In this document: positions 4,883-43,113 of the stretch, in pieces
Numbering within the stretch: the stretch's first letter is position 1
Layout: the number at the start of each line of letters is the position of its first letter
DNA from: Bacteroidaceae bacterium
GTDB lineage: Bacteria > Bacteroidota > Bacteroidia > Bacteroidales > Bacteroidaceae
DNA length: 49,765 nt
Assembly (NCBI GenBank): GCA_017469685.1
Contig: JAFUFW010000022.1
Coordinates: 1 to 49,765 of the forward strand
Direction: 5' to 3'
The notes under the pieces: model-generated
What the model was told of the DNA's origin: nothing
Databases searched by the model: none
The model's input: only the letters and a program-made list of their open reading frames with translations
Translations under genes and position numbers: made by a program

Positions 4883-4920
4883 ACACAGCCGGCTGTATCG
4901 TGCGATACGACCGGCTGTGT
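4883..4920 (-). terminator. Hairpin 1, terminator for nhaA (reverse strand)
   Basis: 18-base arms, ACACAGCCGG... paired with ...CCGGCTGTGT, with two adjacent mismatches and a 2-base loop. On the reverse strand the hairpin is followed directly by six T (4878-4883 read as A on the forward strand). It would stop transcripts leaving nhaA. The two arms coincide with units 1 and 2 of the 22-bp array. Confidence 0.7.
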
Positions 4921-4971
4921 TTGCGCTTCCAGCCGGCTTGATCATGCCATCAAGCCGGCTGGCCAGTTTTT
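4884..4971. repeat. 22-bp dyad array B (AGCCGGCT type)
   Basis: Four units with CCGG centres at 4890.5, 4912.5, 4934.5 and 4956.5, exactly 22 bp apart. The cores are CAGCCGGCTG, ACCGGCT, AGCCGGCT and AGCCGGCT. Adjacent units also pair with each other, giving the two terminator hairpins listed separately. It lies between the convergent genes dprA and nhaA. Confidence 0.75.
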
Positions 4972-4972
4972 T
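4929..4972 (+). terminator. Hairpin 2, terminator for dprA (forward strand)
   Basis: A perfect 14-bp stem, CCAGCCGGCTTGAT with ATCAAGCCGGCTGG, and a 6-base loop (4929-4962). It is followed after four bases by six T (4967-4972). It stops the forward run ending in dprA; the T tract overlaps the reverse-strand stop codon of nhaA. Confidence 0.75.
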
Positions 4973-6344
4973 ATGTCCTGCCCTCTTCCTTCGGCAGAGT
5001 GACGTGTAGCATCAGTGAACCCACAAGCGCCGAGGCGAGTGTACCGCAGAGAATGCCGAGCTTGGCCTCGTTGAGCATGTCGGCGCCCTCGGCTCCGAGG
5101 TGGACGGGATAGCTGAGTGCGGCTATGAACATCGACACGGTGAAGCCTATGCCGCACACCATGCACACGCTGGCAAAGCTCTTCCACGAGCCACCCTCGG
5201 GCATCTGGCACCAGCCGAGCTTGATGCTGAGCCACGAGAACGAGAGAACGCCCGTGAACTTGCCTATAAGCAGGCCGAGGAATACGCCCAGCGCCACGCC
5301 GTGGAACAGGCTCATGAACGACATGCCCTCGAAATTGACGCCCGCATTGGCGAAGGCGAAGACGGGAATGACAACGTAGTTGATGGGCATTGCCAGCTGA
5401 TCCTCGATGTCCTGGAGGGGCGAGATGAGGCAGTCGGACGCTTTCTCGATGCGGCGCAGCAGCTGGATGTCGCGCTTCTCGAGCACCATGGCGCGGTTGC
5501 GGTCGGTCTCTGAGAGCTCTATGTCGGGGTACTCTTTAAGGTACTCGCGAATATACTCCATATAATAGCGCGTGCCGCGCGTGAGGTTGGCCGGGATGCA
5601 GAATGCCAGCACTACGCCGGCAATGGTGGCGTGGATGCCTGAGTTGAGCACCATGTACCAGAGCACGAGGCCGAAGCTCATGTAGAATGCCTTCAGGCGC
5701 ACTTCCTTCCAGTTGCCTATGAGCAGTATGGCAACGACGACAGCTGCGCCGATGAGGTAAGGCCAGGCGAGGCCTTGTGAGTAGAAGATGGCGATGACGA
5801 TGATGCCGCCGAGGTCGTCGGCTACAGCCAGCGCTGCAAGGAAAATCTTAAGCCCGAGGGGAACACGCTTGCCGAACATCGACAGCACGCCGAGCGAGAA
5901 GGCTATATCCGTTGCCATCGGGATGGCGCAGCCGCGCTCCATCAGGGGATGGCCCAAACAGACGCAGAAGAACACGATCACAGGCATGAGCATGCCGCCG
6001 CACGCACCTATGATGGGCAGCAGCGCCTTCTGGCGGGTCGACAGCTCGCCGCACAGCACTTCACGCTTGATCTCGAGGCCGACGCTGAGGAAGAAGAAGA
6101 ACATCAGGAAATCGTTGATGAAGTCCATCAGCGTAAGCGAATGGCCGCCGTGGCTGAACACGTTGAAGCCGCCTATGCTCAGCGACATGGGTTGCTGCCA
6201 CAGCCAGGCGTAGAGCTGGCGCGTAGCAGGCAGGTTGGCAAACACGAGGGCCAGCACCGTGGCCACTATGAGCAGGGCGCTGGCACTGACGTAGCGCCGT
6301 ATGAGGCCCGAAAATGATGATTCTAATTTCAGTGTATCATCCAT
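4971..6344 (-). CDS. nhaA: Na+/H+ antiporter NhaA
   Basis: 457 residues; an inner membrane antiporter that expels sodium in exchange for protons. The ion-binding aspartates are visible: MATDIAFSLG (equivalent of E. coli D133) and AVADDLGGIIVIAIFY (equivalents of D163 and D164). About 11-12 hydrophobic segments. It is longer than the 388-residue E. coli protein, mainly because of a charged, helical loop in the second half (around YIREYLKEYPDIELSE to LLRRIEKASD). It starts 20 bp after the GT2 gene, so it is probably the last gene of the GT4-GT2-nhaA transcript, ending at hairpin 1. Confidence 0.95.
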   Translation of the reverse strand: MDDTLKLESSFSGLIRRYVSASALLIVATVLALVFANLPATRQLYAWLWQQPMSLSIGGFNVFSHGGHSLTLMDFINDFLMFFFFLSVGLEIKREVLCGELSTRQKALLPIIGACGGMLMPVIVFFCVCLGHPLMERGCAIPMATDIAFSLGVLSMFGKRVPLGLKIFLAALAVADDLGGIIVIAIFYSQGLAWPYLIGAAVVVAILLIGNWKEVRLKAFYMSFGLVLWYMVLNSGIHATIAGVVLAFCIPANLTRGTRYYMEYIREYLKEYPDIELSETDRNRAMVLEKRDIQLLRRIEKASDCLISPLQDIEDQLAMPINYVVIPVFAFANAGVNFEGMSFMSLFHGVALGVFLGLLIGKFTGVLSFSWLSIKLGWCQMPEGGSWKSFASVCMVCGIGFTVSMFIAALSYPVHLGAEGADMLNEAKLGILCGTLASALVGSLMLHVTLPKEEGRT

Positions 6345-6364
6345 GATTATTATGTTTTTGATTG

Positions 6365-7147
6365 TTACCTTTGAATGACTGCCCTCACCACGAACCAGGA
6401 ATGGGCTGCCAGCGCGCGCAGCCAGCCGTAGTGACGGGCCATGATGCGCAGGCGCTCGATGAGCGAGCGGCGATGGTTACGGGTCGTCATGCCTTCGGCG
6501 AGGTAGTCGGTGAGGATGAGTTGCGCGTTGTGGATGTGCAGCCCGCGGCGCTCGGCCTGGCGGAGGATGCGTACGCACCAGTCGTAGTCGGCCGAGAAGT
6601 GGTAGCGCAGGTCGTAGGGGTGGCGGCGGGCAATGTCGGTGCGGGCATAGAAGCTCTGGTGGCATACGAGCATACCGCTTAGGAAGCTCTTCGAGGTCAG
6701 CTGCTCCGGCGCGCTGAGGCGGCGGTGGCGAAGGAAGCGGCCCTCGTCGTCAACGAGGTCTGTCTCGCCGTAGATGACGGCCGGCAGGCGCGACTGGTTG
6801 TAGCGCCCGAGCTGGGCCGCCACGTCGGCAAGAGTCGTCGGCGTGTGCAGCTTGTCGCCTGCATTTAGGAAGATGATGTAGTCGCCTTTGGCTGCCGCGA
6901 GGGCTTTGTTCATCGCGTCGTAGAGGCCGTCGTCGGGCTCGCGTATGAGCACTATGCTGTGGGGGTGGCGCTCGTCGGTGTTGCGTTCCACGTAGTGCTG
7001 CACTTCGCTTATAGTCGAGTCCGCCGAGCAACCGTCGACGATGATGTGCTCCACCGCGTTGTAGGTCTGGCCTGAGACGCTGTCGAGCGTGCGCCGGATG
7101 GTTTGTCCGGCATTGTAGGTTACGGTGGCAATGGTGAACTTAATCAT
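6365..7147 (-). CDS. Glycosyltransferase family 2
   Basis: 260 residues. The N-terminal GT-A fold starts FTIATVTYNAGQTIRRTLDSV, followed by HIIVDGCSADST, the nucleotide-sugar and metal-binding acidic motifs, and GLYDAMNKALAAAKGDYIIFLNAGD. FSADYDWCVRI in the second half is the usual acceptor-side region. No transmembrane segment is clear. It probably transfers one sugar in surface polysaccharide assembly; donor and acceptor cannot be told from the sequence. Its ATG overlaps the TGA of the GT4 gene by 4 bp (ATGA), suggesting coupled translation. Confidence 0.88.
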   Translation of the reverse strand: MIKFTIATVTYNAGQTIRRTLDSVSGQTYNAVEHIIVDGCSADSTISEVQHYVERNTDERHPHSIVLIREPDDGLYDAMNKALAAAKGDYIIFLNAGDKLHTPTTLADVAAQLGRYNQSRLPAVIYGETDLVDDEGRFLRHRRLSAPEQLTSKSFLSGMLVCHQSFYARTDIARRHPYDLRYHFSADYDWCVRILRQAERRGLHIHNAQLILTDYLAEGMTTRNHRRSLIERLRIMARHYGWLRALAAHSWFVVRAVIQR

Positions 7148-8397
7148 ATCTTGTGAGACAGCGATTCGTAGAGCTCAATGTATCGGCGCACGACGCTCTC
7201 GACGTTCCAGACCGTAGCGGCCTTGTGTGCAGCAGCTTCGGCCAGACGGTCGTGGTTGTTGCCGTCGAGCACGTAGTCTATGCCCTTGGCCAGGTCCTCG
7301 GCATCGCAGAAGCGTGCGACGTAGCCTGTGCGCTCGTGGTCTATCATCTCAGGGACGCCGCCGATGTCAAAGCCCACGCATGGCGTGGCCGTGGCCATGG
7401 CTTCCATGAGCGTGTTGGGAAGGTTATCTTCGAGCGAGGGCGTGACGAAGGCGTCGACAGCTTGGTACAAGGCGGCCATCTCGGCCTCGTCGGTGATATA
7501 TCCTTTCGTGATTACGGGGAAGGGCAGCTCGGCGGCCACATCCTCGGCGTTCTGCCCGACGACGACGAGAGTCAGCAGTCCCTGCCAGCGCTTCAGCGAC
7601 GGTGAGGCAAGGGCGTCGAGCAGATAGGCCAGACCCTTGCGGGGGGTGCTGACCCTCTGGCAGGTGAAAAGCAGCAGACGGCCGGTGGCAGGAAGCGCCA
7701 TGCGCTGGCGGGCAGCTCCCTTCGGAGCGGGGTGGAACACTTCTGAGTCATAGGTGTTGGGGATGGAGACAACACGGTGACCTGCCGTCAGTGCGCTCTG
7801 ACGAGCCTCGCCGGCAATCCATTCGCTGCACCCGACGAACGTGATGTGACCTTTGGCATAGGCTTGCTGCTTGCGGCGGAAGCTGGCGCACGAAAGGTCG
7901 TGGCGCCCGGGGCGCTGAAGCTGCGGGCAGCGCTGGCATTGCGACTGGAAAAGCTCGCACGTGCGGGCATAGTGGCAAATGCCTGTGAAGGGCCACATGT
8001 CGTGCATCGTCCAGACGACGGGCTTGCCGCTGGCGAGTATCTTGCCAATCTGGCGGGTGGAGAGAAGGCCCTGGTTCACCCAGTGGAGATGGACGACGTC
8101 GGCCTCAACGAACTCGGGAAGCGAAGTGATGTCGGCACCGGCCTGCCCGGCATCGACCTCCCACAAGCCCTTGCGGCTGCATCCGTTGGCCACGAACACC
8201 AGCAGGCGTTCCCATAAAAACTTTAGCCTCAGCAGCCACTGGTGTGGCAGGCGCGACGTGGTCACGGCCGAGGTCTGCTTGTCGCGCACAAGCAGGCAGG
8301 CCTTCTCGCCATGGCGGTTGAGGGCGTCGGTCAGCCGACGGGCTGCAATGGCTGCTCCGCCTGCGCATTCAGAGGTGTTTATTAGCAGTACTCTCAT
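7144..8397 (-). CDS. Glycosyltransferase family 4 (GT-B)
   Basis: 417 residues, opening MRVLLINTSECAGGAAIAAR. N-terminal domain motifs are DVVHLHWVNQG and VWTMHDMWPFTG, followed by a cysteine-rich stretch (CHYARTCELFQSQCQRCP) frequent in Bacteroidetes GT4 enzymes. The C-terminal nucleotide-sugar domain has TPSLEDNLPNTLMEAMA, the EX7E motif. Likely a cytoplasmic enzyme of surface glycan synthesis; donor and acceptor unknown. It is first in the GT4-GT2-nhaA run. A promoter box lies at 8445-8438, and a small hairpin sits just before the start codon. Confidence 0.9.
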   Translation of the reverse strand: MRVLLINTSECAGGAAIAARRLTDALNRHGEKACLLVRDKQTSAVTTSRLPHQWLLRLKFLWERLLVFVANGCSRKGLWEVDAGQAGADITSLPEFVEADVVHLHWVNQGLLSTRQIGKILASGKPVVWTMHDMWPFTGICHYARTCELFQSQCQRCPQLQRPGRHDLSCASFRRKQQAYAKGHITFVGCSEWIAGEARQSALTAGHRVVSIPNTYDSEVFHPAPKGAARQRMALPATGRLLLFTCQRVSTPRKGLAYLLDALASPSLKRWQGLLTLVVVGQNAEDVAAELPFPVITKGYITDEAEMAALYQAVDAFVTPSLEDNLPNTLMEAMATATPCVGFDIGGVPEMIDHERTGYVARFCDAEDLAKGIDYVLDGNNHDRLAEAAAHKAATVWNVESVVRRYIELYESLSHKI

Positions 8398-8403
8398 ATC
8401 TCT

Positions 8404-8445
8404 GCCCGCTGTGCGGGCGTTATTTCCAAATCCGTTGCAAAGGTA
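8404..8445 (-). promoter_or_regulatory. Promoter and leader hairpin of the GT4 operon
   Basis: On the reverse strand, TACCTTTG (8445-8438) matches the Bacteroidetes -7 box. Downstream, the leader holds a perfect 6-bp hairpin, GCCCGC-ACA-GCGGGC (8418-8404), ending 6 bases before the ATG at 8397. A stem this close could hinder ribosome access; that is inference. Confidence 0.5.
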
Positions 8446-8450
8446 CGAGT

Positions 8451-8485
8451 TTTAAACTTTAAACTTAAAACTTGGAACTTGAAAA
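8451..8485. repeat. 7-bp repeat stretch (TTTAAAC type)
   Basis: Five consecutive 7-bp units: TTTAAAC, TTTAAAC, TTAAAAC, TTGGAAC and TTGAAAA. They lie upstream of the GT4 promoter, in the divergent region before tRNA-Leu. The rest of 8486-8600 is A-rich with no gene seen. Confidence 0.7.
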
Positions 8486-8604
8486 ATTCAAAAAAGGGAG
8501 AAAAAGATGAAAATAAGTCAATCGAAAGCTGCAAAAGAAGAAAAAAAATGTGCTCTGCATCGTTATTTTTTTACTTTTCACTTTCCTCTTTTCGCTTATT
8601 GTTG

Positions 8605-8612
8605 TACCTTTG
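8605..8612 (+). promoter_or_regulatory. Promoter (-7 box) of the tRNA-Leu transcript
   Basis: TACCTTTG matches TAnnTTTG and lies 15 bp before the tRNA. I see no other promoter before the 49-residue ORF or the GH95 gene, so it may drive all three. Confidence 0.6.
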
Positions 8613-8627
8613 CCGACGCAAGAGCCT

Positions 8628-8713
8628 GCCCAGATGGTGGAATTGGTAGACACGAGGGACTTAAAATCCCTTGGCCAGTGATGGCCGTACGGGTTCGACC
8701 CCCGTTCCGGGCA
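8628..8713 (+). tRNA. tRNA-Leu (anticodon UAA)
   Basis: An 86-base class II tRNA. The anticodon stem AGGGA/TCCCT encloses the loop CTTAAAA, giving anticodon TAA. The long variable arm forms GGCCA-GTGA-TGGCC. The T arm is ACGGG-TTCGACC-CCCGT. Discriminator A at 8713; CCA is not encoded. The acceptor stem GCCCAGA/TCCGGGC has one A-C mismatch at 5:68. The next gene starts only two bases after the discriminator base. Confidence 0.95.
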
Positions 8714-8715
8714 CA

Positions 8716-8865
8716 ATGAATTTCGATAAAACTCATAGCGCCGACGACGACTATCGCCGCGACGAACTAACCCGAAAGATTGAAAAGTCTCTCCAGAACC
8801 TCACGCTCCCTGAGCTTGAGGCTCTTTATTATCAGATCTCTACGCAGACCTTCACTAACGATTAA
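8716..8865 (+). CDS. Small hypothetical protein, 49 residues, abutting tRNA-Leu
   Basis: MNFDKTHSADDDYRRDELT followed by an amphipathic helix ending in ALYYQISTQTFTND. The ATG is two bases after the end of tRNA-Leu, so processing of the tRNA 3' end would leave an almost leaderless message. The gene ends 16 bp before the GH95 start on the same strand. No family recognised; acidic and soluble, with a predicted helical C-terminal half. The reading frame continues upstream into the tRNA, but no start there is plausible. That it is a real gene is inferred from position, intact length and natural-looking composition. Confidence 0.6.
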   Translation: MNFDKTHSADDDYRRDELTRKIEKSLQNLTLPELEALYYQISTQTFTND

Positions 8866-8881
8866 CTAAACCCTTACGAGT

Positions 8882-11800
8882 ATGAAACGCCTACTGACGT
8901 CACTCTGCGTGCTGGCCATCGCTGCGATGCTGGCGCCCACCGTGTCGGCTCAGACTGTGCCCACGTTCAGCACAAGTGAAGCCGAGACATGGTATATCAT
9001 TCAGTTCCGACGCGGAGAAGCCGCTCTTGCCGACCAAGGCGAGGGGGCCGGCTTGAGGACAACGGCCGTCGACAAGACATCGCCCTCGCAGCTTTGGAAA
9101 CTCATTGGCTCGGCCGACAATTGCGAAATCGTAAGCCGCAACGGACGTCACATATATTATAATGGCAGTCGTTACGCCGCTTCAAGCTCTAAGACAGGCA
9201 ACCTGAAGATCGTCAAAACCACTAACACTGAGTTCGCACCGGCTTGGGAGATACAGTCGGCAAGCACATCTGGGCAGTCGATGAACCAGTGGGGCGGCTA
9301 TGGCATTGATCGCGAGCTGGGCTCATGGAGCGCTGGCGACCCTAACAACCCGCTACTCTTCATTGACCCGGCCACTCTGCCCGACACCGACCCGCTGCCG
9401 CAGAAACTTACCGAATGGAGCACTACAGCATACAGCGCATTCCGCCCAGAAGAGCCGCTGACGCTGTGGTACACCGCGCCTGTGACCAAGGCTACCGTCG
9501 ACGACCCATGGATGGAGTACGCCCTGCCGATAGGCAACGGGCAGCTCGGAGCAATGATCTACGGCGGCATTCGCCAAGACCTCGTACAGTTCAACGAGAA
9601 AACACTCTGGACAGGTTCGTCCACGAACTACGACCGGGGCAAAGGATACCAGAATTTTGGCCATCTCTACATAGAAGACACCTCGGAGCGCTTCGGCACC
9701 ACCTCAACCAAAGGAGCTAAGGAATACGTACGCACGCTCGACCTCGCCAAGGCTTTGGCCACAGCCGAATGGAAGAGTTCGGACAAGAGCGTCACCTTCC
9801 GCCGCGAATACATATCTTCATACCCCGACAAGGTCATTGCCGTACACCTCACGGCCAGCGAACCAGGTCAGCTCTCTAACCGAATATATCTTTGGAATGC
9901 GCATGAGATTCGCTCTACATACGCCGATGGCGGCGGCACTTTCAAAGGCAAGCTTGAGACCGTTTCCTACAATGCCCGCATGAAGGTTGTTGCCACCGGA
10001 GGCACCGTTGCTACCGACGATCAGGGCGTGCACGTCGAGGGTGCCGATGAGATTCTTATAGTCCTCTCGGCTGGTACCGACTACGATCCCGTAGCCACAG
10101 GCTTCGTCAGCGGCACCGATGGCCTTGACGCACGCATCGAATCTGATGTGGAAGCTGCTGCAGGGAAAGGCTGGGAAGCACTTCGCGAAGCGCACGTAGC
10201 CGACTATGCAGCGCTCTTTGACCGCTGCCGCCTCGAACTCGACCGTGCTGAGAACAAGAAGACAACCGACAAGCTCGTTGATGCCTATGCCACACTAACC
10301 AGTAAGGCGGCCATCACACGCTCGGCCGACGCACGCATGCTCGAACAGCTATATTTCCACTACGGCCGCTACATGCTCATCGCAAGCTCGAGAGGCATTG
10401 ACCTGCCCAACAACCTGCAAGGCATTTGGAATCATAAGAACAACCCGCCCTGGAACAGCGACATCCACGCCAACATCAACATACAGATGAACTACTGGCC
10501 AGCAGAGACGACAAACCTCTCCGACCTTCACGAGCCATACCTCAACTATCTCTACAATATGGCGGTGGTGCAGCCCGTATGGCAGCAGTACGCCCGCAGC
10601 TGGCTGGGCCAAACCACAGGCTGGGCCTGCTTCACCGAAAACAATATCTTCGGCAACTGTACCGACTGGATGGCCAAGCAGTATCCCGAAGCTGGCGCTT
10701 GGAGTTGCGACCACCTCTGGCAGCACTACCGCTTCACCCTCGACAGCAACTTCCTTAGGGATAAAGCCCTGCCAGTGATGGTGTCTGCCGTGCGCCTATG
10801 GATGGAGCGCCTCAAGAAGGCATCAGACGGCACTTGGGAGTGCCCCAACGAATGGAGCCCGGAGCATGGCCCCACTGAAAATGCCACTGCTCACTCGCAG
10901 CAAATCGTATGGAACCTTTTCGACAAGACTATCAAGGCAATCGAAATTGTCGGCACGGCAGAGGCTGGAGTCACCAAGACCTTCCTCAACCAGCTGAAAG
11001 CTAAGTTCGAAGCCCTCGATAACGGCCTGCACACAGAAACTTACAACGGAACCTACGGCGCTACACGCAACGGCGTTCGCACTGGCGACGAGATCCTGCG
11101 CGAGTGGAAATATACCGACTATGCCACAGGCAACGGTACTGAAAGCGGACATCGCCACCTCTCACACATGATGGCGCTCTACCCATTTGCCAACTTGCCT
11201 GCCTCAAATCCATTCTACGAGCCAGCCGTGCGTAGCCTGAGACTGCGCGGACTGCCATCTACGGGCTGGTCAATGGGCTGGAAGATGAACCTCTGGGCTC
11301 GCGCCCTCGAGCCCGACCAGGTGGTTGAACTTTTCAAAACCGAATTTAAGCACAGCACCAGCTACGGCACTGACCAGTCGAAGGGCGGCGTCTACTACAA
11401 CCTCTTCGACTCACACTCACCTTTCCAAATCGACGGAAACTTCGGAGTGTGCGCCGCTATGGCAGAACTGTTGCTGCAGAGCCACACTGACACACTACAG
11501 CTGTTGCCTGCCTTGCCCTACATTTGGACGAAGGGCTGCGTGCGCGGCCTGCGTGCCGTGGGCGGCTTCGAAGTCGACCAAACGTGGGAAGACAGTCGCC
11601 TCACAGCTGCCACCATCCGAAGCCTGAGCGGTCAACCGCTGATGATTGCCTACGAAGGCATCGAAGAATATGTGCTCACCACCTCCGACGGTCAGCCCGT
11701 AGAGGCGGCATCGCCCGCTCCAGGGCGGCTCGTTGTTGCATCAACCGCTGCGGGCGAAACCTTTGTCCTGAGCCCTCGAGGCGAAGAGGATGCCATCAAG

Positions 11801-11920: not shown

Positions 11921-11985
11921 CAGCAAAGGGGGTGATTAAGGCCAAGTCCGACTCCGACTCATTCTCTCATCCCATCCTGCACAAC

Positions 11986-12038
11986 AAAAAAGAGCATCCA
12001 GTAGAACGGATAAACCGTCTCTGCCGGATGCTCTTTTT
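11986..12038. terminator. Bidirectional terminator between GH95 and the rubredoxin-like fragment
   Basis: Arms AAAAAGAGCATCC and GGATGCTCTTTTT enclose an inner ACGG/CCGT hairpin. A-rich on the left, T-rich on the right, so it can work on both strands. It lies between convergent genes. Confidence 0.85.
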
Positions 12039-12052
12039 AATATTTAAAACCT

Positions 12053-12127: not shown

Positions 12128-12160
12128 GGTGCCTGTGGGTGTTGTAGCAAGTATTTATAT

Positions 12161-14485: not shown

Positions 14486-14495
14486 GGCGAAACGG

Positions 14496-18033: not shown

Positions 18034-18080
18034 AAAAAAGCTTCGCCGAGCTGAAATACTCAGCTCGGCGAAGCTTTTTT
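18034..18080. terminator. Bidirectional terminator, perfect 21-bp stem
   Basis: Arms 18034-18054 and 18060-18080 are perfectly complementary (AAAAAAGCTTCGCCGAGCTG and its reverse complement, plus one pair), loop AATAC. A6 on the left and T6 on the right serve both directions. Confidence 0.9.
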
Positions 18081-18085: not shown

Positions 18086-18195
18086 GGCGGCTGAGGCGTA
18101 TGTCATAGCCGCTAAGGCGGGTGATTTCACACAGCCAAGCCTTATTGCCAGAACCCTAAAGGGTTTTCGCCAAAAGGCTTAAAGGCTTTGTCGAC
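18086..18195. repeat. 22-bp dyad array C (degraded CCCTTAAGGG type)
   Basis: Five units in a 22-bp frame. Their core regions are GGCTGAGGC, CCGCTAAGGCGG (centre 18114.5), GCCAAGCC (weak), CCCTAAAGGG (centre 18158.5) and GGCTTAAAGGC (about 18180.5). Units 4 and 5 start with AA and carry TTT after the core, as in the clean arrays at 30273 and 43026. It lies between the convergent NlpC/P60 gene and cdaA. The rest, to 18272, shows nothing recognisable. Confidence 0.6.
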
Positions 18196-24438: not shown

Positions 24439-24481
24439 AAAACGGCCGGACGTGCGCTCAAACACGTCCGGCCGTTTTTTT
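24439..24481 (+). terminator. Terminator of the alkaline phosphatase transcript
   Basis: 16-bp perfect stem (24439-24454 with 24463-24478; AAAACGGCCGGACGTG type), 8-base loop, followed by T7. Its left end is A-rich, so it could also work in reverse. Confidence 0.88.
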
Positions 24482-24527: not shown

Positions 24528-24616
24528 ATTCAACCGGCTGAATCGGCATGTTCCACCGGTGGAACACGCGAAAACCATTGATGGTACACACGAATTCCAT
24601 TGGTGGAATTTGTTCT
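24528..24616. repeat. 22-bp dyad array D (four different palindromes)
   Basis: Dyad centres at 24535.5, 24557.5, 24579.5 and 24601.5, exactly 22 bp apart. The dyads are ATTCAACCGGCTGAAT (one mismatched pair), TGTTCCACCGGTGGAACA (perfect, 18 bp), ACCATTGATGGT (mismatch only in the middle) and AATTCCATTGGTGGAATT. Sequences differ, yet each is a palindrome in the same register. Between the convergent alkaline phosphatase and NSS transporter genes; the last unit touches the NSS stop codon. Confidence 0.85.
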
Positions 24617-30272: not shown

Positions 30273-30382
30273 AAGCCTCAGGCCTTCCGGAAAAAAGGCT
30301 TAAGGCTTTCGTCAAAAACCCTTAAGGGGTTTGGCTTGAACCCTTGAGGGTTTTGCCGATAACCCTTAAGGGTTTTTTATAC
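30273..30382. repeat. 22-bp dyad array E (AACCCTTAAGGGTT type), five units
   Basis: Five 22-bp units starting at 30273, 30295, 30317, 30339 and 30361, each opening with AA. Cores: GCCTCAGGC, GGCTTAAGGC, CCCTTAAGGGG, CCCTTGAGGG and CCCTTAAGGG; T runs usually follow. It sits between the convergent glsB and dgt genes. The last unit, followed by TTTTTT, could end glsB transcripts. Confidence 0.9.
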
Positions 30383-36697: not shown

Positions 36698-36742
36698 CAC
36701 ACTGACTTTACGGCGGACACTAACAGGTCCCGAGTTTTAATA

Positions 36743-36918
36743 GTCCACCATAAACGATTCGTCAGTTAGCCATAAGGGATTTGTCCGTCCGGACTAAATG
36801 AGTTACCGGCCCTTTCAAAAGGACTCGTCCGCCCCTTCCCAAGTATTCAACAGTCCTTTCAACAGAAATTGGCAGTCCTTTTGAAAAAAGTTGCCCGCCT
36901 TTTTGAAAGGAGCTGTAT
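36743..36918. repeat. 22-bp array F (GTCCTTTTGAAAAGGA type), eight units
   Basis: Units start at 36743, 36765, 36787, 36809, 36831, 36853, 36875 and 36897, every 22 bp, mostly with GTCC or GCCC. The approximate consensus of the first 16 bases is GTCCTTTCAAAAGGAT, itself a dyad. The clearest palindromes are CCTTTCAAAAGG in unit 4 and CCTTTTTGAAAGG in unit 8; units 2, 3 and 5 are poor. Lies between the convergent EnvC-like and M20 genes, left of a terminator. Confidence 0.75.
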
Positions 36919-36951
36919 GGTCTATTATAGTATTGAATTGACGTGAAAAAC

Positions 36952-36993
36952 AAAACCCCGCCGACAGTCATGGTCACTGAAGGCGGGGTTTTT
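36952..36993 (+). terminator. Terminator after array F
   Basis: AAAACCCCGCC pairs with GGCGGGGTTTT over 11 bp with a 20-base loop, followed by T. The left side is A-rich, so it can act on both strands. It lies 255 bp past the EnvC-like stop, so the array would be transcribed. Confidence 0.8.
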
Positions 36994-37002
36994 GTGTTTA
37001 AT

Positions 37003-37228
37003 TCGATGGAATCGGGCTTTTTTGAATTAATCGTCTGATAAAAGTGAATTATTGGTGAATTTTTAGCGAATAATAGGTTAAAGATGGAGAGTATTAGTGC
37101 AATGGTGGTGAAAAAAGGTGAAGTGGCGGTGAATTTAGGTGAAGTTTTATCAGTTTGCTCGATGAAATGGGGCTTTTTTATAGCATTTAATGTATTATAG
37201 GTGTATCTTAAGGGTGAAAAAAGGTGAA
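37003..37228. repeat. AT-rich intergenic stretch with GGTGAA repeats and a 21-bp direct repeat
   Basis: TCGATGGAATCGGGCTTTTT (37003) and TCGATGAAATGGGGCTTTTT (37159) are near-identical, 156 bp apart. GGTGAA/AGTGAA occurs at least eight times, including two copies of GGTGAAAAAAGGTGAA (37107-37122 and 37213-37228). CTGATAAAA at 37035 and TTTTATCAG at 37145 form an inverted pair. No open frame with coding character. Confidence 0.6.
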
Positions 37229-37234
37229 ACGAAA

Positions 37235-38317
37235 TCAGTCGAGGCGGAGGCCGTCGAGCATGGCGATGTACTCGTCAATGCCCTGACCGAGCTCAGACAC
37301 GAGGATATATTCGTCGGCTGTGTGGCTACGGGCGCTGTCGCCGGGACCCATCTTGAGCGAGGGGCAGGAGAGAAGAGCCTGGTCGGAAAGGGTCGGGGAG
37401 CCGAAGGGTGTGCGCGGCAAGCCATTGGGTAGAGGCCCAAGGGCAAGGGCGCTGCGCACGAGAGGGTGGTCAATGTCGATGCGCGAGGAGCAGAGGCGGA
37501 AAGAACGAGCTTGCACATCGCTCTTCACGCACGCGCGTACCTTATTATATATGTCCACGTTGCTGTAGAATTCGTTTGAGCGTACGTCGACGGTGAAGGT
37601 GCAGGTGTCGGGGATGACGTTGTGCTGAGTGCCGGCATTGATGATTGTAGTGGTCATCTTGACCGGGCCTAAGAGTGGTGAAACCTTTTCGAACGAGTAG
37701 CTTCTGAACCATTCAATGTCTTTCATCGCCAGGTGGATGGCGTTGATGCCCTCGTTGCGTGCGGCATGTCCGGCAAGGCCATGGGCTGTGCAGTCCAGTA
37801 CCATAAGTCCGCGCTCTGCGACTGCGGGCTGCATTCCTGTGGGCTCGCCAATGAGAGCCACGTCGATGTGCGGCAGCAATGGCATTAGGCGCGAGAGTCC
37901 GTTGGCTCCCGAAATCTCTTCCTCAGCCGTGCAGGCGAGCACGATATTGTAGGCTTGAGGGCGGGTGCATAGGTAGCGGAACGCCTGAATTAAACAGACC
38001 AGGGAAGCTCCGTCGTCGTTCGCTCCGATGCCGTAGAGACGGTCGCCCACGAGGATGGGCTCATTGGGGTCGCGCGTCCAAGCATCCGTTGGGCGAACGG
38101 TGTCTATGTGAGCACACAGGAGAAGTGTGGGGCGGGAGCTGTCGAAATCGGGCGCTACAGCCCATACGTTGTTGGCTTCGCGTTGTGTGGCTATGCCTTG
38201 TTTTTTGAGGACGCGTTGCAAGAGATCGGCGGCGGTGGCTTCGGAGCGGCTGACGCGAGGATTGGCAATAAGCCAGCGGAGGAGCTTTAAGGCCTCGGAG
38301 TGGAAGGATTGTGACAT
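37235..38317 (-). CDS. M20 family metallopeptidase, possible N-acyl-ornithine/citrulline deacylase
   Basis: 360 residues from ATG 38317; ATG 38332 would be almost leaderless. M20 zinc motifs: LLLCAHIDTVRPTDAW, YGIGANDDGASLVCLI, TAEEEISGANGLSRL and ALIGEPTG, and a dimerisation domain with THCT-like VIPDTCTFTVDVRSNE. The last zinc His lies in ARSHTADEYI. Family members include ArgE, DapE and peptidases. Bacteroidales carry one such enzyme for arginine synthesis, and the length fits, but no arg genes are nearby, so the substrate is uncertain. Confidence 0.8.
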   Translation of the reverse strand: MSQSFHSEALKLLRWLIANPRVSRSEATAADLLQRVLKKQGIATQREANNVWAVAPDFDSSRPTLLLCAHIDTVRPTDAWTRDPNEPILVGDRLYGIGANDDGASLVCLIQAFRYLCTRPQAYNIVLACTAEEEISGANGLSRLMPLLPHIDVALIGEPTGMQPAVAERGLMVLDCTAHGLAGHAARNEGINAIHLAMKDIEWFRSYSFEKVSPLLGPVKMTTTIINAGTQHNVIPDTCTFTVDVRSNEFYSNVDIYNKVRACVKSDVQARSFRLCSSRIDIDHPLVRSALALGPLPNGLPRTPFGSPTLSDQALLSCPSLKMGPGDSARSHTADEYILVSELGQGIDEYIAMLDGLRLD

Positions 38318-38340
38318 AGAGACTTGATACATTAACCCTA

Positions 38341-38348
38341 CAAATGTA
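38341..38348 (-). promoter_or_regulatory. Promoter (-7 box) of the M20 gene
   Basis: TACATTTG on the reverse strand (38348-38341), 23 bp before ATG 38317. Confidence 0.6.
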
Positions 38349-38453
38349 TGTAAAATCTTTTATTTTTGAGGTCGTGTGAGGTTTTTTTGCATGATTTAAG
38401 CGTGCGAACATAAAAAAGTTGGCGCTTGAAAGCCCAAAATTCAAAGTTTTAGT

Positions 38454-38461
38454 TATCTTTG
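38454..38461 (+). promoter_or_regulatory. Promoter (-7 box) of the acyl-CoA ligase gene
   Basis: TATCTTTG, 60 bp before the ATG at 38522. The leader contains CTCATTC twice in tandem and related 7-mers (about 38474-38507). Confidence 0.6.
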
Positions 38462-38521
38462 CGGTCGAAAGGTGGAGTCTATCATTCACTTCAACTCATT
38501 CCTCATTCATAGTTACATCTT

Positions 38522-40333
38522 ATGTTGAATAAAGCATCATTGGCAGTCCTGATTCACGAGCAGGCTAAGGTCTACGGCACAGGAAAGACGGCTCTGAGTT
38601 ACCGTGACTATGACTCTGCGACGTGGAAGGAAATCTCTTGGCAACAGTTTTCGGATACCGTGGCCCAGGTGTCGAATGCCTTATTGGAACTGGGCGTCGG
38701 CGAGCAGGAGAACATAGGCGTATTCACTCAGAATAAGCCGGAAGGCGTGTGCGTGGATTTTGGTACATACGGCATTCGTGCAGTCTCTATCCCGTTCTAT
38801 GCCACGAGCAGCGAGGCTCAGATACAATATATGATCAACGATGCGTCGGTGCGCTTCGTTTTCGTCGGTGAGCAATACCAGTATGACACTGCCTTCCGTG
38901 TGCTTAAGATGTGCCCTACGCTCGAGCGTCTCGTGATCTTCGATCCGAAGGTGGAGAAGAACCCGCAGGATCAGGTATCCATGTACTGGGATGAGTTTCT
39001 TGCTTTGGGCTCAAAACTGCAGCATGCCGAGGAGGTGGCACGCCGCGCCTCGGCCGTGGAGCTGGATGACTTGGTGAACATACTTTACACCAGCGGCACT
39101 ACGGGCGTTTCAAAAGGCGTCACTCTGACTTATCGCATGTATGCAGCGGCCATTCCGGCCAACGATAAGGTCATGGACCTTACGGAGCACGACGTGGTGA
39201 TGTGTTTCCTTCCGTTCACCCACGTCTTCGAGCGTGCGTGGAGCTATTGGTGTCTCTCTCGTGGCTGCCAGCTGGCTATCAACCTGAGGCCTCAGGATAT
39301 TCAGATGACGCTGCGCGAGGTGCATCCTACATGTATGGCTGCTGTGCCTCGTTTCTGGGAGAAAGTGTATGCCGGGGTGCAGGAGAAGATAGCCTCGAGC
39401 GGAGCTGTTCAGCGCAAGCTTATGCTTGATGCACTTGCCGTGGGCAAGAAGTACAACGTGGAATATAAGATCCGTGGCCTGGAGCCCCCGTTGCCTCTTA
39501 AGCTTCGCTATAAGTTCTACGAAAAGACCATCATAGCGCTTCTTAAGAAGACGTTAGGTCTCGAGAATGCCAACTTCTTCCCCACGGCAGGTTCGTTCAT
39601 ACCCCCTGCCATTGAGGAGTTTGTCCATGCGTGCGGCATAAAGATGACCGCCGGCTATGGTATGACGGAGACCACGGCTACTGTGTCGTGTGACTGGCAT
39701 CATTCGCCAGTGAGCATAGGCTCCGTGGGCCGTGTGCTCGATGGCATAGAAATAAGTTTTGGCGAGCAGAATGAGATATTGTTGCGGGGCGACACCATTA
39801 CGAAACAGTACTATCGCAAGGCAGAGATTACGGCTGCATCCTATGATGATGAGGGCTGGTTCCACACTGGCGACTGCGGTTACCTCAAGGATAGCGAACT
39901 GTACCTTACAGACCGTATCAAGGATCTCTTTAAGACCTCTAATGGCAAATATATCTCTCCGCAGGCGTTAGAGTCGAAATTCGTCGTCGACCGCTTTATC
40001 GACGAGGTCGCCATAATTGCCGACGAGCGGAAATTTGTCTCGGCTCTGGTCATCCCCGACTACAACCTGCTTGAGAAGTGGGCTCGCGACAATGCCATAG
40101 CCTTCGAAAGCCGTGAGCAGCTTTGCGCCAACGTCATCGTCAACAAGATGGTGATGGATCGCATAGCCACGCTGCAGCAGGAGTTTGCTCACTATGAGCA
40201 GGTGAAGCGCATAACTCTCCTTCCGCAGCCATTCTCCATGGAACGTGGGGAGCTTACTAATACGCTGAAGATCAAACGCCCCGTGATAGCCCAGAACTAC
40301 AAGGCACAAATCGATGCCATGTACGAGGAATAA
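38522..40333 (+). CDS. Long-chain fatty acid-CoA ligase (AMP-binding)
   Basis: 603 residues. ANL superfamily: P-loop LVNILYTSGTTGVSKGVTLT (A3 core), FLPFTHVFERAW, the A5 motif GYGMTETTATVSC, the A7 motif GWFHTGDCGYL, DRIKDLFKTSNGKYISPQAL (A8) and the catalytic lysine region near TLKIKRP. Activates fatty acids to acyl-AMP and then acyl-CoA; the long FadD form typical of Bacteroidales. Cytoplasmic or membrane-associated. Own promoter; prfB follows after 93 bp. Confidence 0.92.
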   Translation: MLNKASLAVLIHEQAKVYGTGKTALSYRDYDSATWKEISWQQFSDTVAQVSNALLELGVGEQENIGVFTQNKPEGVCVDFGTYGIRAVSIPFYATSSEAQIQYMINDASVRFVFVGEQYQYDTAFRVLKMCPTLERLVIFDPKVEKNPQDQVSMYWDEFLALGSKLQHAEEVARRASAVELDDLVNILYTSGTTGVSKGVTLTYRMYAAAIPANDKVMDLTEHDVVMCFLPFTHVFERAWSYWCLSRGCQLAINLRPQDIQMTLREVHPTCMAAVPRFWEKVYAGVQEKIASSGAVQRKLMLDALAVGKKYNVEYKIRGLEPPLPLKLRYKFYEKTIIALLKKTLGLENANFFPTAGSFIPPAIEEFVHACGIKMTAGYGMTETTATVSCDWHHSPVSIGSVGRVLDGIEISFGEQNEILLRGDTITKQYYRKAEITAASYDDEGWFHTGDCGYLKDSELYLTDRIKDLFKTSNGKYISPQALESKFVVDRFIDEVAIIADERKFVSALVIPDYNLLEKWARDNAIAFESREQLCANVIVNKMVMDRIATLQQEFAHYEQVKRITLLPQPFSMERGELTNTLKIKRPVIAQNYKAQIDAMYEE

Positions 40334-40394
40334 TTTCATTTATGAATTGCGATTGATGGTTGATGAATACTGGGTGGAAGCTGTTGGTGTTCTA

Positions 40395-40415
40395 AGATCA
40401 TAGATCATAAATCAT
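40395..40415. repeat. 7-bp repeat linker (AGATCAT type)
   Basis: AGATCAT, AGATCAT, AAATCAT in tandem, 12 bp before the prfB start. TTGATGG TTGATGA (near 40354) is a second short 7-bp run in the same gap. Confidence 0.65.
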
Positions 40416-40426
40416 CGAAAAGGAAA

Positions 40427-41542
40427 GTGATAACACAGGATCAACTGAAAGAGATACAGGAGCGCACGGAGGCGCTCTACAAATACCTTGACATACCCCG
40501 CAAGCAGATGGAGTATGAGGAGGAGCAGCTGCGCACCCAGGCGCCCGACTTCTGGGAGGATGCCAAGCGGGCCGAGGAGCAGATGAAACTGGTGAAAGGC
40601 CTTGAGAAATGGATAAAAGGCTATGGTGAGGTGCGCACGCTGACAGATGAACTCTCCACTGCCTTTGACTTCTACAAGGAGGATCTCGTGACGGAGCAGG
40701 AAGTTGACGAGCTGTACGCCAAGGCCACCGAGGCTATCGAGGCCTTGGAACTCCGTAACATGCTTCAGCAGGAGGAGGATCCGATGGATGCCGTGCTCAA
40801 GATAAACTCCGGGGCCGGTGGCACCGAGGCTCAGGACTGGGCACAGATGCTCATGCGTATGTACATGCGCTGGGCCGAGCAGAACGGTTACAAGCTTACT
40901 ATCGCCAACCTGCAGGACGGCGATGAGGCAGGCATCAAGACAGTGACAATGCAGATTGAGGGCGAATATGCCTACGGCTACCTCAAGAGCGAGAGCGGCG
41001 TGCACCGCCTGGTGCGCGTGTCGCCCTATAATGCCCAAGGCAAGCGCATGACGTCGTTTGCAAGTGTTTTCGTTACGCCGCTCGTCGATGACACCATTGA
41101 GGTGTACGTAGATCCTGCGCGCGTCTCGTGGGACACCTTCCGCAGCAGCGGTGCCGGCGGCCAGAATGTCAACAAGGTGGAGACGGGCGTCCGCCTTCGC
41201 TATATGTATAAAGACCCCGACACGGGCGAAGAGGAGGAAATCCTCATCGAGAACACAGAGAGCCGCAAGCAGCTCGAGAACCGTGAGAACGCCATGCGTC
41301 TGCTCAAGTCGCAGCTCTACGACCGTGCCATGCAGAAGCGTCGTGAGGCGCAGGCAAAGATAGAGGCCGGCAAGAAGAAGATAGAGTGGGGCTCGCAGAT
41401 CCGCTCCTATGTCTTCGATGACCGCCGCGTAAAAGACCACCGCACAGGATTCCAAACCTCAGACGTAGGCGCCGTGATGGACGGCAAGATTGACGGCTTC
41501 ATCAAAGCCTACCTCATGGAATTTGGCGGCGAGGAAAGCTGA
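40427..41542 (+). CDS. prfB: Peptide chain release factor 2
   Basis: 371 residues, starting with GTG after a good Shine-Dalgarno-like AAAAGGAAA, rare in this window. Class I release factor: GGQ at 244-246 in GAGGQNVNKVETGV, and the stop-recognition tripeptide SPY at 199-201 where E. coli RF2 has SPF. The N-terminal region EALYKYLDIPRKQ spans the site of the +1 programmed frameshift of many prfB genes; here the frame is continuous through CTTGAC (40487-40492), so that control is absent. Reads UGA and UAA codons. A small membrane protein gene and a CYTH gene follow. Confidence 0.94.
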   Translation: MITQDQLKEIQERTEALYKYLDIPRKQMEYEEEQLRTQAPDFWEDAKRAEEQMKLVKGLEKWIKGYGEVRTLTDELSTAFDFYKEDLVTEQEVDELYAKATEAIEALELRNMLQQEEDPMDAVLKINSGAGGTEAQDWAQMLMRMYMRWAEQNGYKLTIANLQDGDEAGIKTVTMQIEGEYAYGYLKSESGVHRLVRVSPYNAQGKRMTSFASVFVTPLVDDTIEVYVDPARVSWDTFRSSGAGGQNVNKVETGVRLRYMYKDPDTGEEEEILIENTESRKQLENRENAMRLLKSQLYDRAMQKRREAQAKIEAGKKKIEWGSQIRSYVFDDRRVKDHRTGFQTSDVGAVMDGKIDGFIKAYLMEFGGEES

Positions 41543-41578
41543 CAGAGAAGAACAGTAAACTCCTAAATAATAATCATT

Positions 41579-41722
41579 ATGAGCAAAGCAAAAAAAGAAC
41601 TTCGTGCAAAGAAGAAGGCTGAGCGCGAAGCCCGCCAGGCCAAGCGCGTAATCCAGTGGATTATCTGTGGTCTTGTTGTCCTGTTTATCGTTTGTTTCAT
41701 TGGTTGGGCCTTCATCCGCTAA
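41579..41722 (+). CDS. Small single-pass membrane protein, 47 residues
   Basis: MSKAKKELRAKKKAEREAR is strongly basic; residues about 26-46 (QWIICGLVVLFIVCFIGWAF) form one transmembrane helix. By the positive-inside rule the basic end faces the cytoplasm. Lies 36 bp after prfB and 33 bp before the CYTH gene on the same strand. No family recognised; the basic arm might touch ribosomes or nucleic acids, but that is speculation. Confidence 0.75.
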   Translation: MSKAKKELRAKKKAEREARQAKRVIQWIICGLVVLFIVCFIGWAFIR

Positions 41723-41755
41723 GCGGCCGGACTCAACACAAAAAACGGGACAGCC

Positions 41756-42259
41756 ATGGCACTTGAGATTGAACGTAAGTTCCTCGTAAAAGGCGACGCC
41801 TATAAAGACGTCGCCTTTAATCATTCCAAGATAGTTCAAGGCTACATCTGCAGCCGCCCCACCGTGCGCATTCGCATTCGTGGCGACAAAGGCTATCTCA
41901 CTGTAAAGGGAGGCAGCAACGATGGCGGCCTCACACGCTACGAGTTCGAGACCGAGGTGCCCCTCGCAGATGCCCTCTCTATGCTGCGCCTCTGCGCCGA
42001 AGGCTTTGTCGAGAAGACGCGCTGGCTCGTGGATGCCGGCGATGGCCACACTGTTGAGGTCGACGAGTTTCATGGCTCCAACGAGGGCCTCGTCATTGCA
42101 GAGGTGGAGCTGCATAGTACCTCCGACAGCTTCTGCAGCCCGGAATTCCTCGGCCGGGAGGTCACAGGCATCCGCCGCTATTACAACTCACATCTGCGCA
42201 AACATCCCTATTCAGCCTGGAGTAAGGAAGAGAAGGAATGTCTTGATCTTCCCGCTTGA
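41756..42259 (+). CDS. CYTH domain protein (putative triphosphatase)
   Basis: 167 residues. Starts ALEIERKFLVKGD, the ExExK signature of CYTH enzymes, followed by IRIRGDKGYLTVKGG, RYEFETEVPLADAL, KTRWLVDAG, TVEVDEFHGSNEGLVIAEVE and ITxIRRYYNSHL-like ends. Family members hydrolyse inorganic triphosphate or make cAMP; triphosphatase is the commoner role in bacteria and is the guess here. Complete single-domain form. Its end is 37 bp from the convergent phosphopantetheinyl transferase gene. Confidence 0.88.
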   Translation: MALEIERKFLVKGDAYKDVAFNHSKIVQGYICSRPTVRIRIRGDKGYLTVKGGSNDGGLTRYEFETEVPLADALSMLRLCAEGFVEKTRWLVDAGDGHTVEVDEFHGSNEGLVIAEVELHSTSDSFCSPEFLGREVTGIRRYYNSHLRKHPYSAWSKEEKECLDLPA

Positions 42260-42296
42260 ATGAGCTTTACGCTCAGGCATCGCTCGGCGTAGACAG

Positions 42297-42881
42297 TCAG
42301 GGGCGGTGCTTAAGACACAGGCTATAGACGTAGCGACGGTCGGGACTGTCGGTGGTCTCGAAGACACAGCCCGAGGCCTTTGCCTCATCCAGCACGCTGT
42401 GCAACTCGTCTACGAGCCCTGTTCCCGTCAGTTTCAGATAGGCTTCCTTCTGAGTCCACAGGCGTATGAAGGCGCGCTGCGGTTCGTTGGCCGTCCTAAC
42501 AGTGGCTGCTTCGCCGGCGTTCATTGTTCGTTTGAGCAGTGCTGGCGAGAAAGGGCGTATGCTCTCTATGTCGATTCCTACAGGTTCCGTGGCGATGGCG
42601 CAGCAAGCCGCCTCACGGCAGTGGCTGAGGCTGAAGAAGATATCCTCGTGGCCAATGATGCCTGGCTTGCCATGAATGCCGAAGGTGAATGTCGGGGGCT
42701 CGGCAATGTCGAAGAGCTCGCGAAGGCCTTGGCACAGCAATAGATATGCAGCTGCGCCTGCACGCTGCGCACGTTCGTTGCTGAAGCGCTGCAGGTATGA
42801 GCGTCTCTGAGCGCTCATCTGTTCGAAGGCCTCGTTGAGGTCGAGAGCTTCAAGATGGTCGTTGATGTAAACCTTTGCCAT
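42297..42881 (-). CDS. 4'-phosphopantetheinyl transferase superfamily protein
   Basis: 194 residues. Sfp/AcpT-type signature: FSLSHCREAACCAI, then VGIDIESIRPF with the Mg-binding Asp and Glu, and WTQKEAYLKLTGTGL. Moves phosphopantetheine from CoA to acyl or peptidyl carrier proteins. No carrier protein gene is nearby, so the partner is unknown. Monocistronic; the upstream gap of 480 bp before rsmH contains array G and no other gene. Confidence 0.88.
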   Translation of the reverse strand: MAKVYINDHLEALDLNEAFEQMSAQRRSYLQRFSNERAQRAGAAAYLLLCQGLRELFDIAEPPTFTFGIHGKPGIIGHEDIFFSLSHCREAACCAIATEPVGIDIESIRPFSPALLKRTMNAGEAATVRTANEPQRAFIRLWTQKEAYLKLTGTGLVDELHSVLDEAKASGCVFETTDSPDRRYVYSLCLKHRP

Positions 42882-43025
42882 TGCGGTGATTGCCGTGGTT
42901 GCGTCTGCAAAGATACTTATTTTTTGATTATCTCATCTTCTTACGGCCTAAAATAACGTGTGGCTCAGGCTTTTTGTGCACATCCTGTGCTCGCGCATCC
43001 GCACACTGTTAATTACTTTTAAAAT

Positions 43026-43113
43026 AACCCTTAAGGGTTTTCGCCTGAACCCTTAAGGGTTTTGCCCATAACCCTTAAGGGTTTTGCGTGAAACCCTTGG
43101 GCTTGTTTTCTGC
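43026..43113. repeat. 22-bp dyad array G (CCCTTAAGGG type), four units
   Basis: Units start at 43026, 43048, 43070 and 43092, each opening AACCCTT. The first three share AACCCTTAAGGGTTTT; the fourth is decayed (CCCTTGGGC). The only array here that lies between divergent genes, upstream of the division cluster. The rest of 42882-43325 is free of genes and known sites, apart from AT-rich DNA near 43260-43325. Confidence 0.9.

What the first reader, a model, noticed from the sequence alone, without database searches (positions are those of the whole stretch)
4884..43113. Seven intergenic arrays share a 22-bp period and unit dyads but not sequence
Arrays at 1-42, 4884-4971, 18086-18195, 24528-24616, 30273-30382, 36743-36918 and 43026-43113 each repeat every 22 bp, with a palindrome at about the same place in each unit (centre near base 7). 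Three loci use CCCTTAAGGG and one a degraded form of it; the others use AGCCGGCT, mixed CCGGT-type or ATTGATGG-type palindromes, and CCTTTTGAAAGG. Period and symmetry are kept while bases change, which suggests selection on structure (small hairpins in RNA, or dimers bound on one helix face, 22 bp being about two turns) or a copying process that makes new arrays. Five of the seven lie between convergent genes. I do not recognise a named repeat family with these properties.
Basis: seen in the sequence. Interest (0 to 1): 0.8.

Follow-up and report, generated by a model that had tools for sequence, protein, structure and literature searches.

The report
Fixed-pitch 22-bp arrays between genes
Some gut and rumen bacteria related to Prevotella carry, near the ends of many genes, short runs of DNA repeats spaced exactly 22 base pairs apart; the spacing is shared while the repeated sequence differs between species, which points to an unidentified DNA-binding system rather than an ordinary repeat family.

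Summary
All seven window arrays show the 22-bp lag. In about 3.0 Mb from this genome and relatives, a tandem-repeat scan blind to palindromes found 118 intergenic arrays at period 22 against 23 at the 27 other periods from 13 to 40; order-level relatives gave 1 in 273 kb, E. coli 0 in 150 kb. Genomes have their own motifs: AACCCTTAAGGGTT here (76 pairs, 0 exact in 60 relatives), CAACGTGTTG in three others (262, 160, 136 pairs), another in cultured Paraprevotella. One gene gap can carry different motifs in different species. About 40 of 127 period-22 calls are significantly dyadic: 16 of 20 in this genome, 24 of 107 elsewhere. Arrays sit near stop codons (median 47 bp). RNA hairpins are disfavoured: no G.U bias. 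Best reading, about 50%: operator-like arrays for a fast-evolving protein packing every two helical turns. Protein and function are unidentified. Nine paper searches found no description; no RAYT hit.

The parts
1..42 (.). CCCTTAAGGG array at the contig start (truncated)
   Evidence: sequence; lag-22 identity 0.80, dyad not significant
4884..4971 (.). four-unit AGCCGGCT-type array between convergent dprA-like and nhaA genes
18086..18195 (.). degenerate five-unit array (one AACCCTAAAGGGTT unit) between convergent NlpC/P60 and cdaA-like genes
   Evidence: weakest lag-22 signal of the seven (0.41)
24528..24616 (.). four different palindromic units (one TTCCACCGGTGGAA) between convergent phosphatase-like and sodium-dependent transporter genes
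   Evidence: same palindrome family at L110:2755
30273..30382 (.). five-unit AACCCTTAAGGGTT-family array between convergent GNAT-domain and dGTPase genes
   Evidence: no array in the G016 orthologue, an array with another motif in L052
36743..36918 (.). eight-unit, mostly non-palindromic array between convergent M23 peptidase and ArgE/DapE-like genes
   Evidence: the orthologous gap has arrays with other motifs in L045 and L058
43026..43113 (.). three perfect AACCCTTAAGGGTT units plus a half unit, between divergent phosphopantetheinyl transferase-like and mraW genes

Best explanation
The arrays are operator-like DNA: runs of sites for a DNA-binding protein that packs along the double helix once per two turns (22 bp). 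Shown: the exact pitch across many genomes of the clade, near-exclusion from coding DNA, 3'-end bias, a dominant motif in G000, in the trio G078/G080/G009 and in Paraprevotella, even dyads where dyads exist, and orthologous gene gaps holding arrays with different motifs. Inferred: that a protein (probably a dimer) makes the lattice, that its specificity drifts between species and the sites follow, and that bound arrays act as boundaries at gene ends (against read-through or supercoil spread). The protein was not found.
For: Period 22: 118 intergenic arrays against 23 at the 27 other periods together; coding DNA 3 against 32. Even loops 0, 2, 4, 6, 8 give 24, 22, 11, 10, 17 arrays at period 22 (one array can count under several loops), odd loops 2 each. 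In the 15 dyad arrays with CCCTTAAGGG, core columns of adjacent units agree at 0.80-0.97 and the eight spacer columns at 0.30-0.57. CAACNNGTTG neighbours up to 70 bp apart in the G078 and G080 samples: 67 at 22 bp, 3 at 44, 1 at 66, none other. In G078, 7 of 20 adjacent units flip the asymmetric centre, as a dyad-symmetric binder would allow. In 35 dyad arrays outside G000, A/T is preferred at +-8 from the dyad (GC 0.25) and G/C at +-11 (0.63). Distance to stop codons median 47 bp (n=69), to start codons 177 bp (n=51), p=2.7e-9; convergent gaps 3-fold enriched, p=0.001. Array positions recur in orthologous gaps: 15 observed, 9.6 expected, p=0.0025.
Against: No binding protein was identified. 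Of 10 proteins beside 9 arrays, 1 had no Pfam family and none carried a helix-turn-helix regulator or transposase family; one (L096:598-1314) has a Schlafen AlbA_2 domain, sometimes annotated as DNA-binding (recalled), and was not followed up. Outside G000 most period-22 calls are not significantly palindromic. Some arrays mix unlike palindromes (window 24528, L027:4926), which one specific protein would not explain. In G078/G080 arrays the centre is AC or GT in 96 of 99 sites, odd for a simple homodimer. Arrays lie in longer gaps (median 344.5 against 173 bp), which distance statistics do not correct for; divergent gaps are not significantly depleted (6 of 60 against 150 of 867, p=0.16). Terminator-like inverted repeats lie beside the arrays at 18086 and 24528, so arrays are not the only end signal there.
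Confidence: 0.5

Rival explanations
1. Copying or mutational process: replication or recombination makes tandem duplications with a built-in 22-bp step, and arrays are neutral. Coding copies are purged because 22 is not a multiple of 3.
For: Near-perfect intergenic tandem duplications: 39 hits at 22 bp (several in one array), at most 1 at each of 13-21 and 23-44, 2 at 45. Whole units including spacers are conserved in some species (L031, L042). Coding arrays at 22 are almost absent.
Against: Only 2 of the 39 are isolated two-unit duplications. In G000 the core is kept and the spacer is not, unlike plain duplication. The same motif recurs at many separate gaps of one genome and array position recurs in orthologous gaps.
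Confidence: 0.2
2. RNA-level element: tandem hairpins in 3' UTRs that terminate transcription or protect messages.
For: Arrays lie near stop codons and between convergent genes. Terminator-like calls at gene ends: with arrays 19 of 69, without 92 of 802, p=0.0005, 13 of the 19 inside the array. Some G000 arrays begin with A runs and end with T runs. The G016 orthologue of the 30273 gap has a terminator-like hairpin instead of an array (read by eye).
Against: No wobble bias on the sense strand: 33 G.T, 45 A.C, p=0.21. Odd loops not enriched. A strict pitch is not needed for hairpins. Outside G000 most arrays are not dyadic. 50 of 69 gene ends with arrays have no terminator-like call. Rfam finds only tRNAs in the five sources searched.
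Confidence: 0.15
3. Recombination sites: arrays are where a recombinase, or homologous recombination between dispersed arrays, exchanges gene blocks.
For: Between G078 and G080 an 8.3-kb block at 97% identity starts inside one array, where synteny breaks, and ends about 57 bp before another; the other aligned blocks of at least 300 bp are 81-93% identical. Symmetric arms with an asymmetric central dinucleotide resemble recombinase crossover sites (recalled).
Against: One locus only. The array near the right end is collinear in both genomes and has three units in each. Asymmetric centres are not general: the G000 core is a full palindrome. No recombinase was sought.
Confidence: 0.1

Closest known systems
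REP / BIME elements
   Same: dispersed, intergenic, many copies per genome, palindromic
   Different: no RAYT family hit (PF01797) in this 87%-complete assembly; no GTAG/CGTC tag in the consensus; fixed 22-bp tandem pitch; outside G000 most arrays are not significantly palindromic; sequence changes by species while pitch stays
Plasmid iterons, and ParR/parC or MetJ-type operator arrays (recalled, not tested here)
   Same: tandem sites at a pitch near whole helical turns that nucleate protein lattices; 22-bp tandem or direct repeats are reported on plasmids (search listing only)
   Different: in many gene gaps of the assembly, among ordinary chromosomal genes; not one replication or partition locus
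ArcA-type direct-repeat sites
   Same: 11- or 22-bp centre-to-centre spacing, multiple sites bound together (PMC3798270, passages seen)
   Different: those regulate promoters with one motif; these are mostly near gene ends, with species-specific motifs
CRISPR arrays
   Same: in G000, conserved 14-bp repeat plus variable 8-bp spacer
   Different: repeat and spacer far too short, many loci, spacers recur between loci; cas genes were not searched
Neisseria dRS3/NIME (recalled)
   Same: inverted arms around an 8-bp variable centre, dispersed
   Different: not tandem at fixed pitch; the motif is fixed

Membership tests
REP/RAYT | RAYT/Y1 transposase in the genome | tested here: not met
   PF01797: 0 matches in G000 (87% complete), found in 5 of 14 control genomes; relatives not tested
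REP/RAYT | GTAG or CGTC tag at the palindrome foot | tested here: not met
   the consensus AACCCTTAAGGGTT with its spacers has neither; CGTC occurs in single units, e.g. near window 30310; tags as described in PMC3733652 passages
CRISPR | repeats of 24-48 bp separated by spacers | tested here: not met
   14-bp core, 8-bp spacer; size range from a PMC3733652 passage
CRISPR | cas genes | not tested
   no search made
Iterons | tandem repeats at one replication origin beside a rep gene | tested here: inconclusive
   arrays are spread over many contigs and gaps, against one origin; no rep gene search was made
Intrinsic terminators | stem-loop followed by a T run at the gene end | tested here: inconclusive
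   19 of 69 gene ends with arrays have one, 13 inside the array; 50 of 69 have none
RNA hairpin element | G.U tolerated on the transcribed strand | tested here: not met
   33 G.T against 45 A.C mismatches, p=0.21
Rfam families | covariance-model match at gathering score | tested here: not met
   only three tRNAs in the window, L096, L101, L105 and L106; other loci not searched
Operator array bound by a protein lattice | cognate protein binding demonstrated | not testable with these tools
   no candidate protein established

The most novel reading that the evidence does not exclude
A clade of gut and rumen Bacteroidales has a chromosome-wide DNA-protein lattice at gene ends, built on a fixed 22-bp pitch, whose recognition sequence turns over between species while the pitch and some of the places are kept: a bacterial counterpart of satellite or boundary DNA, with a rapidly co-evolving binding protein still to be found.
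Probability: 0.35. Interest if true: 0.9.

Novelty: categorically new. Interest (0 to 1): 0.78.

Why it matters
Bacterial intergenic repeats are normally recognised by shared sequence. Here the shared property is a length, 22 bp, and sequence is the free variable, so a repeat finder sees many unrelated small families. If a protein makes the lattice, its specificity has changed repeatedly within one clade while its many sites followed, a natural series for studying how a DNA-binding protein and its sites co-evolve. Cultured Paraprevotella genomes carry such arrays, so it can be tested at the bench.

Tried and rejected
The first pattern search used a wrong gap and found nothing; corrected. A genome-contig scan with a three-unit pattern found nothing. 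Compensated changes between neighbouring units (65 of 101 both-sided differences paired in arrays without CCCTTAAGGG) were dropped as evidence because arrays were picked for dyads. Inner symmetry as proof of DNA recognition was dropped: when the two inner pairs are ignored in detection, the innermost pair is complementary in 18 of 57 units and the next in 38 of 57 (arrays without CCCTTAAGGG). A stop-codon role for TTAA was dropped because other motifs have no stop (by reading). Recurrent neighbour genes were sought without a lead, since the loci were chosen around one gene. Motif orientation against the upstream gene was mixed: Paraprevotella 6 same and 21 opposite units, G078 20 same and 11 opposite. 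My notebook says that array 2 of G078 and G080 differs in length; one search shows three units in both, so that note is wrong.

Limits: gene calls come from a home-made hexamer caller, so gap borders are approximate. Relatives include near-duplicate species (L063/L084, L036/L038), so counts are not fully independent, and one search does not model relatedness. The loci are the best 80 of 585.

Papers: nine searches listed no description of such arrays. Passages of PMC3733652 and PMC3798270 were seen; other papers were seen in listings only. Subscription papers and preprints are mostly outside the library.
Full report
What is in the window. All seven arrays exist at the stated coordinates. Lag-22 identity runs from 0.41 to 0.80 and beats the best of lags 18-26 in dinucleotide shuffles at all seven (p<=0.003). 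Dyad symmetry is significant at five, weak at 36743 (p=0.031) and not significant at the truncated 1-42. Five lie between convergent genes, one (43026) between divergent genes, one at the contig start. The flanking genes that were scanned look like ordinary enzymes, transporters and cell-wall genes. Terminator-like inverted repeats lie beside two arrays, at 18045-18064 (7 pairs) and 24439-24478 (17 pairs).

Own genome. The window is contig C69 of a 2.83-Mb, 94-contig assembly. The pair CCCTTAAGGGTT-N9..11-CCCTTAAGGG occurs 76 times in it and has no exact match in 60 relatives. The motif is not wholly private: G016 has one CCTTAAGGGTT array (L151:5345) and L020 a weaker one (L020:1250). In a 448-kb sample (window plus 20 stretches) there are 46 exact AACCCTTAAGGGTT, against 0 for each of 30 control palindromes of equal composition; with up to 2 mismatches there are 59 sites, whose neighbours lie 22 bp apart in 34 cases, 44 bp in 2 and 200 bp or more in 3. 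17 of 224 intergenic regions carry a three-unit dyad array at period 22, none at 14-21 or 23-25. In 15 arrays with CCCTTAAGGG, core columns of adjacent units agree at 0.80-0.97, spacer columns at 0.30-0.57. Some spacers recur between loci (ATTGGCAA, CGGCGCAT, TTGCCGAT).

Relatives. A protein search with the dGTPase beside one array brought the best 80 of 585 loci, mostly from uncultured rumen and gut Bacteroidaceae/Prevotellaceae, with Paraprevotella the closest cultured genus in the list. Matching contig lengths suggest that G016 is isolate Tb.RUG.375, G003 is RGIG2663 and G080 is RGIG8159. Palindromic arrays with other sequences but the same pitch are present in relatives. In a dyad scan by group, even dyads at period 22 against the mean of other periods were 24 against 1.06 in G000, 4 against 0.72 in G016, 6 against 0.61 in G003, 3 against 0.11 in G067, 4 against 0.28 in G078, 17 against 1.67 in L016-32 and L035-71, 7 against 0.94 in L072-95, 2 against 1.28 in order-level relatives and 1 against 0.28 in E. 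coli; the last two are no clear excess.

The main result. I then looked for tandem repeats without asking for palindromes: three units, at least 68% identity, no shorter period, periods 13-40. Intergenic arrays at period 22 were 20 in the own sample, 11 in G016, 10 in G003, 4 in G067, 9 in G078, 42 in L016-32 and L035-71, 3 in the two Paraprevotella loci and 19 in L072-95: 118 in all. The 27 other periods gave 23 together. Coding DNA gave 3 at period 22 and 32 at other periods. Order-level relatives gave 1 at 22 and 3 at other periods in 273 kb, E. coli none in 150 kb. Small samples of Segatella albensis (41 kb), Xylanibacter ruminicola (43 kb), a Bacteroides MAG (21 kb) and an Alloprevotella MAG (14 kb) gave none at 22; one Prevotella locus (21 kb) gave 1 and Paraprevotella (63 kb) 4. 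So the spread among cultured genera is not settled. In the same kind of scan 41 of 127 period-22 calls were dyadic at p<=0.05, 37 even and 4 odd; a repeat with more shuffles gave 40, being 16 of 20 in G000 and 24 of 107 elsewhere. So the pitch is the general property and dyads belong to a subset, largest in this genome.

Species-specific motifs. CAACNNGTTG pairs at about 22 bp number 262 in G078, 160 in G080 and 136 in G009; 1 each in G000 and G067; 0 in the other 56 of 61 genomes. The pattern read backwards gives 0 in those three but 1-16 matches in nine other genomes, which may be a motif of their own. In arrays of the G078 and G080 samples the centre is AC or GT in 96 of 99 sites. Paraprevotella clara and P. 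xylaniphila hold 117 and 86 matches (both strands, up to two mismatches) to CCGAAYGATTTTTCAATC, control 0; in 20 fetched loci, 15 clusters of two or more units (one array counted twice) have 18 of 24 spacings at 22 bp, the rest at 20, 41, 42 or 52.

Place kept, sequence changed. Among gene gaps shared by at least three of the syntenic loci (36 gap types, 256 members, 24 with an array), repeat occurrences in the same gap number 15 against 9.6 expected (p=0.0025, length-weighted permutation). In one gap five of five species have an array, with at least three clearly different motifs. The 36743 gap of the window has arrays in 3 of 7 loci (window, L045, L058) and the 30273 gap in 2 of 7 (window, L052). 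In G016, the nearest relative found, the 30273 gap has a terminator-like hairpin and no array. Relatedness among species was not modelled.

Where arrays sit. None of 56 dyadic arrays lies inside a called gene. Arrays lie closer to stop codons (median 47 bp, n=69) than to start codons (median 177 bp, n=51; p=2.7e-9) and are 3-fold enriched between convergent genes (15 of 60 gaps with arrays against 85 of 867 without, p=0.001); divergent gaps are not significantly depleted (p=0.16), and gaps with arrays are longer (median 344.5 against 173 bp). In same-direction gaps of G000, 11 of 17 arrays are nearer the upstream stop than the downstream start.

DNA or RNA. Even loops are strongly enriched at period 22, odd loops are not. 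On the sense strand of codirectional arrays mismatched dyad pairs are 33 G.T and 45 A.C; an RNA hairpin would tolerate G.U. The asymmetric centre of G078 units flips between neighbours in 7 of 20 cases. These favour recognition of double-stranded DNA. Terminator-like calls are more common at gene ends with arrays (19 of 69) than without (92 of 802), mostly inside the array, but 50 of 69 have none, so a termination role remains possible for some.

How arrays change. Near-perfect 22-bp duplications give 39 hits, with at most 1 at each period 13-21 and 23-44, but only 2 are isolated two-unit cases: units multiply within arrays, while lone duplications are rare. Between G078 and G080 an 8.3-kb block at 97% identity is bounded on the left inside an array, where synteny breaks, and on the right about 57 bp before another; other aligned blocks are 81-93%. 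This is one case.

Known families. PF01797 gives no hit in this assembly, Rfam finds only tRNAs in five sources, and nine paper searches listed no description. ArcA sites show that 11- or 22-bp spacing is natural for cooperating DNA-binding proteins (PMC3798270 passages). My judgement: a repeat class defined by pitch and not by sequence, probably an operator array for an unknown, fast-evolving protein. The pitch, the spread and the turnover are shown; the protein and the function are inferred.

Noticed in passing
L028 and L031, within 250 bp after the dGTPase gene (ends 11356 and 11347): Intergenic tandem repeats of shorter period (CTATAG about every 9 bp); L026 and L028 also have period-7 AAGGATT-like runs.
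   Followed up: no
L199:1339-9668 (G078 C4) against G080 C37:34168-42494: 8.3-kb block at 97% identity with arrays at or near both ends, while other aligned blocks of the two genomes are 81-93% identical; possible recent exchange of a gene block.
   Followed up: partly
G000 contigs C2, C15, C35, C42, C52, C69, near an end: Six contigs begin or end within about 350 bases of a CCCTTAAGGG array (places; the list is cut), as if assembly broke there.
   Followed up: no
L236, L239, L242, L243 (Paraprevotella): Some clusters contain units facing each other at 20 or 42 bp, besides same-direction units at 22 bp.
   Followed up: no
window 24439-24478 and 18045-18064: Terminator-like inverted repeats between the left-hand stop codon and the arrays at 24528 and 18086.
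   Followed up: partly
G000 C57:16116-16147: A single CAACCGGTTG pair at 22 bp in the own genome, close to the motif that dominates G078, G080 and G009.
   Followed up: no
nine genus members, most in G076 (16 matches): The backwards control GTTGNNCAAC at about 22 bp also matches, perhaps another array motif.
   Followed up: no
L096:598-1314 (minus strand), start about 91 bp from the array at L096:1406: Schlafen AlbA_2-domain protein with an array upstream of its start; a weak lead for the binding protein.
   Followed up: no
L118 and L022 (G003): Another inverted repeat, GTGGAGGCTAT...ATAGCCTCCAC, at two places of that species.
   Followed up: no
intergenic scan of the clade loci: Period 21 is the only other period with several calls (7 against 127 at 22); whether these are slipped 22-bp arrays was not examined.
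   Followed up: no
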